DNA of 32,404 nt, from positions 1 to 32,404 of the forward strand of contig LBYH01000012.1 in NCBI GenBank assembly GCA_000996035.1. Reading direction: 5' to 3'. Origin of the DNA: Parcubacteria group bacterium GW2011_GWA2_40_143 (GTDB taxonomy: Bacteria; Patescibacteriota; Minisyncoccia; UBA9983). A program made the position numbers and the translations under genes. The notes below the pieces were generated by a model, which saw nothing but the letters and a program-made list of their open reading frames with translations, was not told where the DNA came from and made no database searches. This document shows, one piece after another, positions 31,527 to 32,404 of the stretch (position 1 is the stretch's first letter; every line of letters begins with the position of its first letter).

Positions 31527-31602
31527 GGGCCTTTAGCTCATCTGGTAGAGCGCCTCATTTGCAATGAGGAGGTAAGCGGTTCGAGTCCGCTAAGGTCCAC
31601 CA
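31527..31602 (+). tRNA. tRNA-Ala (UGC) with encoded CCA
   Basis: GGGCCTTTAGCTCATCTGGTAGAGCGCCTCATTTGCAATGAGGAGGTAAGCGGTTCGAGTCCGCTAAGGTCCACCA; loop TTTGCAA; G3:U70. Confidence 0.96.
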
Positions 31603-31764: not shown

Positions 31765-31977
31765 ATGGATATGACAGAAATATCGCCAAAACTTGGACTA
31801 AATCTCAAGCGCATTAGAACAAAGAAAAAAAAGTCGCAAGGAGATATTGCACGTGCCTTAGAGGTTCACAGAGCGTATGTGAGTGGTATAGAAAACGGCA
31901 AACGCAATCCTACTCTTGCGACAATAGAGAATTTGGCTAATGCACTTGGTGTAACAGCTAGTGAGCTTTTGAAATAA
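31765..31977 (+). CDS. XRE-family HTH regulator
   Basis: LGLNLKRIRTKKKKSQGDIARALEVHRAYVSGIENGKRNPTLATIENLANALGVTASELL. Confidence 0.93.
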   Translation: MDMTEISPKLGLNLKRIRTKKKKSQGDIARALEVHRAYVSGIENGKRNPTLATIENLANALGVTASELLK

Positions 31978-31981
31978 ATTT

Positions 31982-32404
31982 ATGAAAGGCAAAGTGACAA
32001 TCGTAATAGGCGGACAGTTTGGTTCAGAGGCAAAAGGCAAAGTAATTTCATTTCTTGCCGATGAATTTGATCTTGCCGTAAGAACTGGGTCACCGAATGC
32101 GGGACATACGGTTTTTAAGGACGCGAATATTTATCGTCTACAACAAATTCCTGCGACTTTTGTAAATAAAAAATGCGTTCTCTATATCGGTGCAGGTGCA
32201 CTCATCAACCCCGATATTTTAAGAAGAGAGGTTGAGCGCACTAATACAAAAGAACGCCTTTTTATTGATCCACAAGCTGGAATCATTGAGGAAAAACATC
32301 TTTTGCAAGAAGGCGAGCTTGTTCAAAAAATCGGAAGCACAGGAAAAGGTTGTGGTGCGGCACTTGCTGATAGAATCTGGCGAAAAGATTTCAAGCTCGC
32401 AAAA
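31982..32404 (+). CDS. Divergent adenylosuccinate synthetase-like protein, truncated by the window edge
   Basis: VTIVIGGQFGSEAKGKVISFL...RTGSPNAGHTVF...IGAGALINPDIL...IGSTGKGCGAALADRIWR matches PurA architecture. Confidence 0.85.
   Translation, partial: MKGKVTIVIGGQFGSEAKGKVISFLADEFDLAVRTGSPNAGHTVFKDANIYRLQQIPATFVNKKCVLYIGAGALINPDILRREVERTNTKERLFIDPQAGIIEEKHLLQEGELVQKIGSTGKGCGAALADRIWRKDFKLAK

What the first reader, a model, noticed from the sequence alone, without database searches (positions are those of the whole stretch)
31982..32404. Adenylosuccinate-synthetase-like gene with a GSEAKGK nucleotide-binding motif
The N-terminus reads VIGGQFGSEAKGKV where canonical PurA has WGDEGKGK. The Asp of GDE, the catalytic base in E. 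coli PurA (Asp13), is Ser here, while the NAGHT histidine region and STGKG loop are retained. I recall that Asp-to-Ser changes at this position are reported for PurZ-type enzymes that make 2-aminoadenine precursors in Z-genome phages; this needs verification. A substrate switch (dGMP or another nucleotide), a phage-derived origin, or a non-purine role are all possible. The gene continues past the window edge.
Basis: partly seen in the sequence, partly recalled or inferred. Interest (0 to 1): 0.62.

Follow-up and report, generated by a model that had tools for sequence, protein, structure and literature searches.

The report
PurZ-like gene in a dwarf bacterium
A tiny Patescibacteria genome carries the start of a gene for an enzyme resembling the one certain viruses use to replace adenine in their DNA with 2-aminoadenine, and it sits alone on an ordinary chromosome that lacks the partner enzyme (PurB) needed to finish the job.

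Summary
Window 31982-32404 (+) is the first 141 codons of an adenylosuccinate-synthetase-family gene, cut by the end of its contig, with Ser15 in place of the catalytic Asp (GGQFGSEAKGK). Two close homologues (L003, intact, 79% identical; L002, 84%, one in-frame stop) supply the missing part. They carry every fixed Ser-type feature: Ser15, Arg216, PIRV and the one-residue-longer AG-x-SGP loop. In a maximum-likelihood tree all Asp-type PurA separate from all Ser-type rows at 100/100. So the gene belongs to the Ser-type (PurZ/PurZ0) branch, but to its own deep lineage rather than inside any sampled phage clade. In L002 and L003 the base-reading residue of the nucleotide donor is Asn, as in ATP-using phiVC8 PurZ, whereas 67 of 70 other Ser-type rows keep Asp. 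All four carrier genomes are Patescibacteria and lack purB. No Z-cluster gene flanks any copy, and two of the four copies are broken. Two copies lie just downstream of a tRNA gene. Best reading: a laterally moving, lone PurZ-like enzyme predicted to join Asp to (d)GMP. Substrate and role are untested. By-product: a dNMP kinase-PurZ fusion cassette on rhizobial plasmids inside defence islands.

The parts
31982..32404 (+). 5' part (141 codons) of a Ser-type, PurZ-like adenylosuccinate synthetase gene; runs off the contig end
32009..32041 (+). GGQFGSEAKGK nucleotide-binding loop; Ser15 codon TCA at 32024-32026 replaces catalytic Asp13 of E. coli PurA
32096..32110 (+). NAGHT motif (residues 39-43)
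32333..32350 (+). GSTGKG loop (residues 118-123)
31765..31977 (+). 70-aa Cro/C1-type (XRE, HTH_3) regulator ending 4 nt before the PurZ-like ATG, probably co-transcribed
   Evidence: HTH_3 E 5.8e-17
31527..31602 (+). tRNA-Ala (TGC), directly upstream of the XRE/PurZ-like pair; possible insertion site
   Evidence: its 3' end occurs once only in the genome

Best explanation
The window holds the start of a chromosomal gene for a short-form, Ser-type PurA-superfamily enzyme that most likely works like phage PurZ: it would phosphorylate O6 of a guanine nucleotide (dGMP or GMP) with a nucleoside triphosphate, probably ATP, and displace the phosphate with aspartate to give N6-succino-2-amino-(deoxy)adenylate. 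It behaves as a laterally transferred single gene drawn from the phage/plasmid pool of Ser-type enzymes, kept for a while under purifying selection and then lost. Because the cell lacks PurB, the product is either a dead end that drains (d)GMP or is finished by a lyase from elsewhere (phage, element or host cell). Shown: family, Ser substitution, Ser-type signature in close homologues, absence of purB and of Z-cluster neighbours, decay of two copies. Inferred: substrate, ATP preference, lateral origin, cellular role.
For: Ser15 and motifs. Full-length homologues L003/L002 share the fixed Ser-type differences Arg216, Ile220 and the loop insertion at 224. The tree splits Ser- from Asp-type at 100/100 and makes L002+L003 one lineage (100/99 in the smaller tree). 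Donor column: S-2L Q308 and phiVC8 N297 (numbering verified), which PMC8342488 ties to adenine reading, align with Asn285 of L003/L002; Asp in 67 of 70 other Ser-type rows. AlphaFold model of L003 (pLDDT 92) matches PurA 5k7x, PurZ0 7vf6 and dGMP-bound PurZ 6fm1. No Lyase_1 (PF00206) in the carrier genomes, positive in 14 of 14 controls. Silent sites near saturation while dN is 0.09-0.20. Patchy: no copy in ten same-family genomes nor in other members of two other carriers' families. L004 broken, L002 with a stop.
Against: The window itself ends before residues 216, 220, 224 and 285; these rest on homologues 79-84% identical. NCBIfam's PurZ model is not reached by L003 (254.8, cut-off 300), while its archaeal PurA model is (380.1, cut-off 368). 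Sequence and fold scores are nearest to archaeal PurA. The AU test does not reject the carriers branching with Asp-type PurA (p 0.15). No Z-cluster neighbour. A lone PurZ without PurB makes no obvious sense for Z-DNA synthesis.
Confidence: 0.6

Rival explanations
1. An ordinary IMP-using adenylosuccinate synthetase of the archaeal short type acquired by Patescibacteria, with a harmless Asp-to-Ser change.
For: NCBIfam PRK04293 cut-off passed by L003; closest solved structure is Pyrococcus PurA; branching with Asp-type not rejected (p 0.15).
Against: Ser at the catalytic base together with Arg216, Ile220 and the extra loop residue, all absent from 20 of 20 Asp-type sequences; 100/100 split; no purB to use adenylosuccinate.
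Confidence: 0.15
2. The gene belongs to a phage or integrative element inserted next to tRNA-Ala, whose remaining genes lie beyond the contig end; it serves Z-DNA synthesis of that element.
For: Window copy directly follows tRNA-Ala + XRE regulator; the L004 remnant starts about 12 nt after a tRNA-Gly; 282 viral contigs encode Ser-type relatives, most of the best 80 next to Pol I and dUTPase/DutZ genes.
Against: L002 (next to gyrB), L003 and L004 have flanks on both sides without phage or Z genes; no second copy of the tRNA 3' end in the genome; nearest viral relative only 47%; a purB-free host could not complete dZMP unless the element brought its own lyase.
Confidence: 0.3
3. A cellular anti-phage device: the enzyme drains dGMP or seeds abnormal nucleotides during infection, with the XRE protein as repressor.
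For: XRE gene 4 nt upstream; patchy distribution; related Ser-type enzymes on rhizobial plasmids lie among SIR2, AbiE, Gabija-like and RelA/SpoT genes; lack of PurB leaves only a draining function inside the cell.
Against: No XRE gene was seen beside L002, L003 or L004; the Patescibacteria genes do not cluster with the rhizobial ones in the tree; PADLOC gives no hit for L003.
Confidence: 0.15
4. A transferred gene without function in the cell, caught in the act of decay.
For: L002 stop codon, L004 insertion plus internal deletion; sporadic occurrence.
Against: Intact L003; amino-acid changes far rarer than silent ones between window, L002 and L003; the visible 141 codons are open.
Confidence: 0.2

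Closest known systems
Phage PurZ (phiVC8 6FM1, S-2L 7ODX; N6-succino-2-amino-2'-deoxyadenylate synthase)
   Same: Ser for Asp13, R-x-x-PIRV loop with insertion, Asn/Gln at the donor base position (in L002/L003), short form without the bacterial insert
   Different: On a Patescibacteria chromosome, no DatZ/MazZ/DpoZ neighbours, no purB in the host, 28-35% identity, below the NCBIfam PurZ cut-off
Phage PurZ0 (Gordonia phage Archimedes 7VF6; Arthrobacter phages)
   Same: GGQFGSEAKG, PIRVAGNSGP, nearest characterised Ser-type enzyme by sequence (about 36-41%)
   Different: PurZ0 keeps Asp at the donor base position, L002/L003 have Asn; no dutZ/dmtZ/DUF5664 nearby
Archaeal PurA (Pyrococcus horikoshii 5K7X; Altiarchaeota L005/L006)
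   Same: Length about 336-340 aa, best overall score and fold (TM 0.93)
   Different: Asp13 present, KxxPTRVG without the extra residue, uses IMP and GTP
Rhizobial plasmid dNMP-kinase-PurZ fusions (L028, L031-L037)
   Same: Bacterial, Ser-type, about 40% identical to L003
   Different: N-terminal kinase domain, DUF7002 and HD-phosphatase neighbours, defence-island setting, Asp at donor position

Membership tests
PurZ | Ser in place of catalytic Asp13 | tested here: met
   Window Ser15; also L002, L003
PurZ | PurZ-type loop (Arg, PIRV, extra residue before SGP) | tested here: inconclusive
   Met in L002/L003; window copy ends before it
PurZ | Adenine-reading Asn/Gln at donor site | tested here: inconclusive
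   Asn285 in L002/L003; window copy ends before it
PurZ | Score above the NCBIfam NF038379 cut-off (300) | tested here: not met
   L003 254.8; characterised phage PurZ/PurZ0 types score 345-397; several Ser-type viral copies also fall short
PurZ | dGMP + Asp + ATP activity | not testable with these tools
   needs enzyme assay
PurZ | Z-cluster context (DatZ, MazZ, DutZ, DpoZ) | tested here: not met
   No such neighbours around L002, L003, L004 or in the visible window; a DatZ query found nothing in the four genomes but had no positive control
PurZ0 | Asp at the donor base position (archaeal-PurA-like GTP pocket) | tested here: not met
   Asn in L002/L003; Asp in L030 and L041; window copy ends before it
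Canonical PurA | Catalytic Asp13 | tested here: not met
   Ser15
Canonical PurA | NCBIfam archaeal PurA model PRK04293 (cut-off 368) | tested here: met
   L003 380.1; window fragment too short to judge
Canonical PurA | Works with PurB in AMP synthesis | tested here: not met
   No PF00206 lyase in any carrier genome; 14 of 14 controls positive

The most novel reading that the evidence does not exclude
Some Patescibacteria use a chromosomal, ATP-dependent PurZ-like enzyme, in the absence of PurB, as a deliberate (d)GMP sink or as one half of a 2-aminoadenine pathway shared with a phage, element or host cell: a cellular use of Z-nucleotide chemistry.
Probability: 0.12. Interest if true: 0.78.

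Novelty: new variant of a known kind. Interest (0 to 1): 0.5.

Why it matters
PurZ-type enzymes are described from phages that replace adenine by 2-aminoadenine, plus a few unplaced archaeal sequences. A Ser-type copy on bacterial chromosomes, with the ATP-type donor residue and without PurB, bears on how PurZ arose from archaeal PurA and on whether cells ever use this chemistry. The wider Ser-type family seen here (282 viral contigs, a deep Patescibacteria lineage, kinase fusions in plasmid defence islands) widens the set in which that question can be tested by simple enzyme assays.

Tried and rejected
A second contig holding the rest of the gene: none. A repeated tRNA-Ala 3' end marking an integrated element: only one copy. 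Close viral relatives: two single-sequence scans found none, the alignment scan only relatives of 47% or less. A toyocamycin-type role: the Rhizobium copy with that context (L027) has Asp13 and groups with PurA. One clade of all Asn/Gln-donor enzymes: neither supported nor rejected (AU p 0.198), so one or two Asp-to-Asn changes remain open. Caution: the viral rows were fetched with patterns that include GSE, so their uniform Ser15 is partly by selection; the differences at 216, 220 and 224 are not. The paper that first described PurZ0 is not held; its GTP use is from memory, and one sentence of PMC12884076 states the ATP/GTP preferences the other way round from its own introduction.

Full report
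Observation. The ORF at 31982-32404 (+) begins MKGKVTIVIGGQFGSEAKGKV and stays open to the window edge. The window is the whole of contig C12 of a 729-kb, 24-contig genome scored 100% complete; the edge is an assembly break and no other contig holds the remainder. The ORF matches PHROG_1211 at 1e-37, archaeal PurA structures at 9e-27 and the PurZ0 structure 7VF6 at 4e-23. Four nucleotides upstream lies a 70-aa Cro/C1-type regulator, and before it a tRNA-Ala. Further upstream are ordinary genes: a two-component pair, an AP-endonuclease-type protein, a glutaredoxin.

Relatives. One scan of about 85,000 species genomes returned three Patescibacteria copies: L002 (84% identity), L003 (79%) and L004 (69%); two Altiarchaeota proteins at 47-48% and one cyanobacterial protein at 36% were ordinary Asp-type PurA. 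L003 is intact (336 aa). L002 has one TAA at codon 54 and is otherwise open. L004 is a remnant: it starts about 12 nt after a tRNA-Gly, is interrupted by inserted sequence soon after the nucleotide-binding loop, and lacks most of the rest before a recognisable C-terminus. Ten other genomes of the window genome's family have no copy, nor do other members of the families of L002 and L004. Between the window, L002 and L003 silent sites are near saturation while dN is 0.09 to 0.20, so the gene was long under purifying selection.

Family. In an alignment of 20 Asp-type and 70 other Ser-type sequences, four features are fixed or nearly fixed: position 15 (D versus S), 216 (K versus R), 220 (T/S versus I) and an extra residue at 224. 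L002 and L003 have the Ser-type state at all four; the window copy shows the first and ends before the others. The viral rows were retrieved with a pattern containing GSE, so their Ser15 is partly a selection effect, but the other three features are not. The tree separates all Ser-type from all Asp-type rows at 100/100 and shows L002+L003 as one well supported lineage of uncertain depth within the Ser-type side. A smaller tree agrees, and two alternative placements cannot be rejected: with Asp-type PurA (AU p 0.15) and with the Asn/Gln-donor phage enzymes (p 0.198). NCBIfam would name L003 an archaeal-type adenylosuccinate synthetase (380.1 versus cut-off 368) and not PurZ (254.8 versus 300); phiVC8, S-2L and two PurZ0-type phage enzymes reach 345-397 on the PurZ model, while several Ser-type viral proteins also fall short. 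I therefore call it PurZ-like and do not file it as PurZ, PurZ0 or PurA.

Active site. PMC8342488 reports that in S-2L PurZ Ser23 stands next to the 2-amino group of dGMP and that Gln308 (Asn297 in phiVC8) conflicts with a guanine donor. Numbering on the phage sequences confirms these residues. The aligned residue is Asn285 in L003 and L002, and Asp in 67 of 70 other Ser-type rows; the three exceptions are phiVC8, S-2L and Bacillus phage vB_BpsS-140. The prediction is a guanine-nucleotide acceptor and ATP as donor. An AlphaFold model of L003 (pLDDT 92, pTM 0.92) superposes on 5K7X (TM 0.93), 7VF6 (0.89) and dGMP/ATP-bound 6FM1 (0.86); the fold alone does not decide substrate.

Context and role. 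The best viral relatives mostly sit beside Pol I and dUTPase/DutZ genes, as in described Z-phages (PMC12884076). None of the Patescibacteria copies does. None of the carrier genomes has any PF00206 lyase, though 14 of 14 control genomes do, so the succino-product could not be converted to 2-aminoadenylate inside these cells by a known route. A lone enzyme, patchily present, twice next to a tRNA and twice broken, points to lateral transfer with transient benefit. A (d)GMP-draining function, a shared pathway with an element or host, or simple relic status are all open.

By-product. Eight alphaproteobacterial plasmids carry a Ser-type enzyme fused to a dNMP-kinase-like domain; in the annotated records it is followed by a DUF7002 gene, with an HD deoxynucleotidase-like gene and an unassigned protein of about 455 aa nearby. 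Several sit among defence genes. A Sinorhizobium medicae version pairs PurZ-like with a dCTP-deaminase/dUTPase-like gene next to BilD. The cassette also occurs in contig L108 beside a serine recombinase and genes that look like a type I restriction system. I found no description of it in the papers searched.

Noticed in passing
L028, L031-L037 (for example L032:7862-12172): Rhizobial and Methylobacterium plasmids carry a dNMP-kinase-PurZ fusion (Ser-type); in the annotated records it is followed by a DUF7002 gene, with an HD deoxynucleotidase-like gene and an unassigned protein of about 455 aa nearby. Several sit in defence islands (SIR2, AbiE, Gabija-like, RelA/SpoT). Candidate bacterial Z-nucleotide or defence system.
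   Followed up: partly
L038:6296-10937: Sinorhizobium medicae plasmid: PurZ-like (GGQFGSEGKGK) + dCTP-deaminase/dUTPase-like ORF + HD phosphatase-like gene, next to a BilD protein (PADLOC E 1e-165).
   Followed up: partly
L027:7366-15712: Rhizobium leguminosarum plasmid cluster folE-purA'-purB-queE-IMPDH-nitrile hydratase-queC-HAD-phosphoribosyltransferase-queD, resembling toyocamycin/sangivamycin biosynthesis (resemblance from memory).
   Followed up: no
L044-L123: IMG/VR holds at least 282 contigs with Ser-type PurZ-like genes (best 80 fetched), mostly next to Pol I and dUTPase genes: a wider Z-type phage set than the named phage records.
   Followed up: partly
L108:1648-12893: Kinase-PurZ + DUF7002 pair beside a serine recombinase and probable type I restriction genes in a contig listed as viral but looking like a cellular genomic island.
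   Followed up: partly
L003:6238-8499: Large-form PurL (phosphoribosylformylglycinamidine synthase) ORF at the end of an 8.5-kb Taylorbacteria contig, unexpected for this group; possible transfer or chimeric contig.
   Followed up: no
L029:9962-11083: Bacillus phage vB_BpsS-140 has a Ser-type enzyme with Asn at the donor position but neither NCBIfam PurZ nor PurA cut-off met; a sibling case worth assaying.
   Followed up: no
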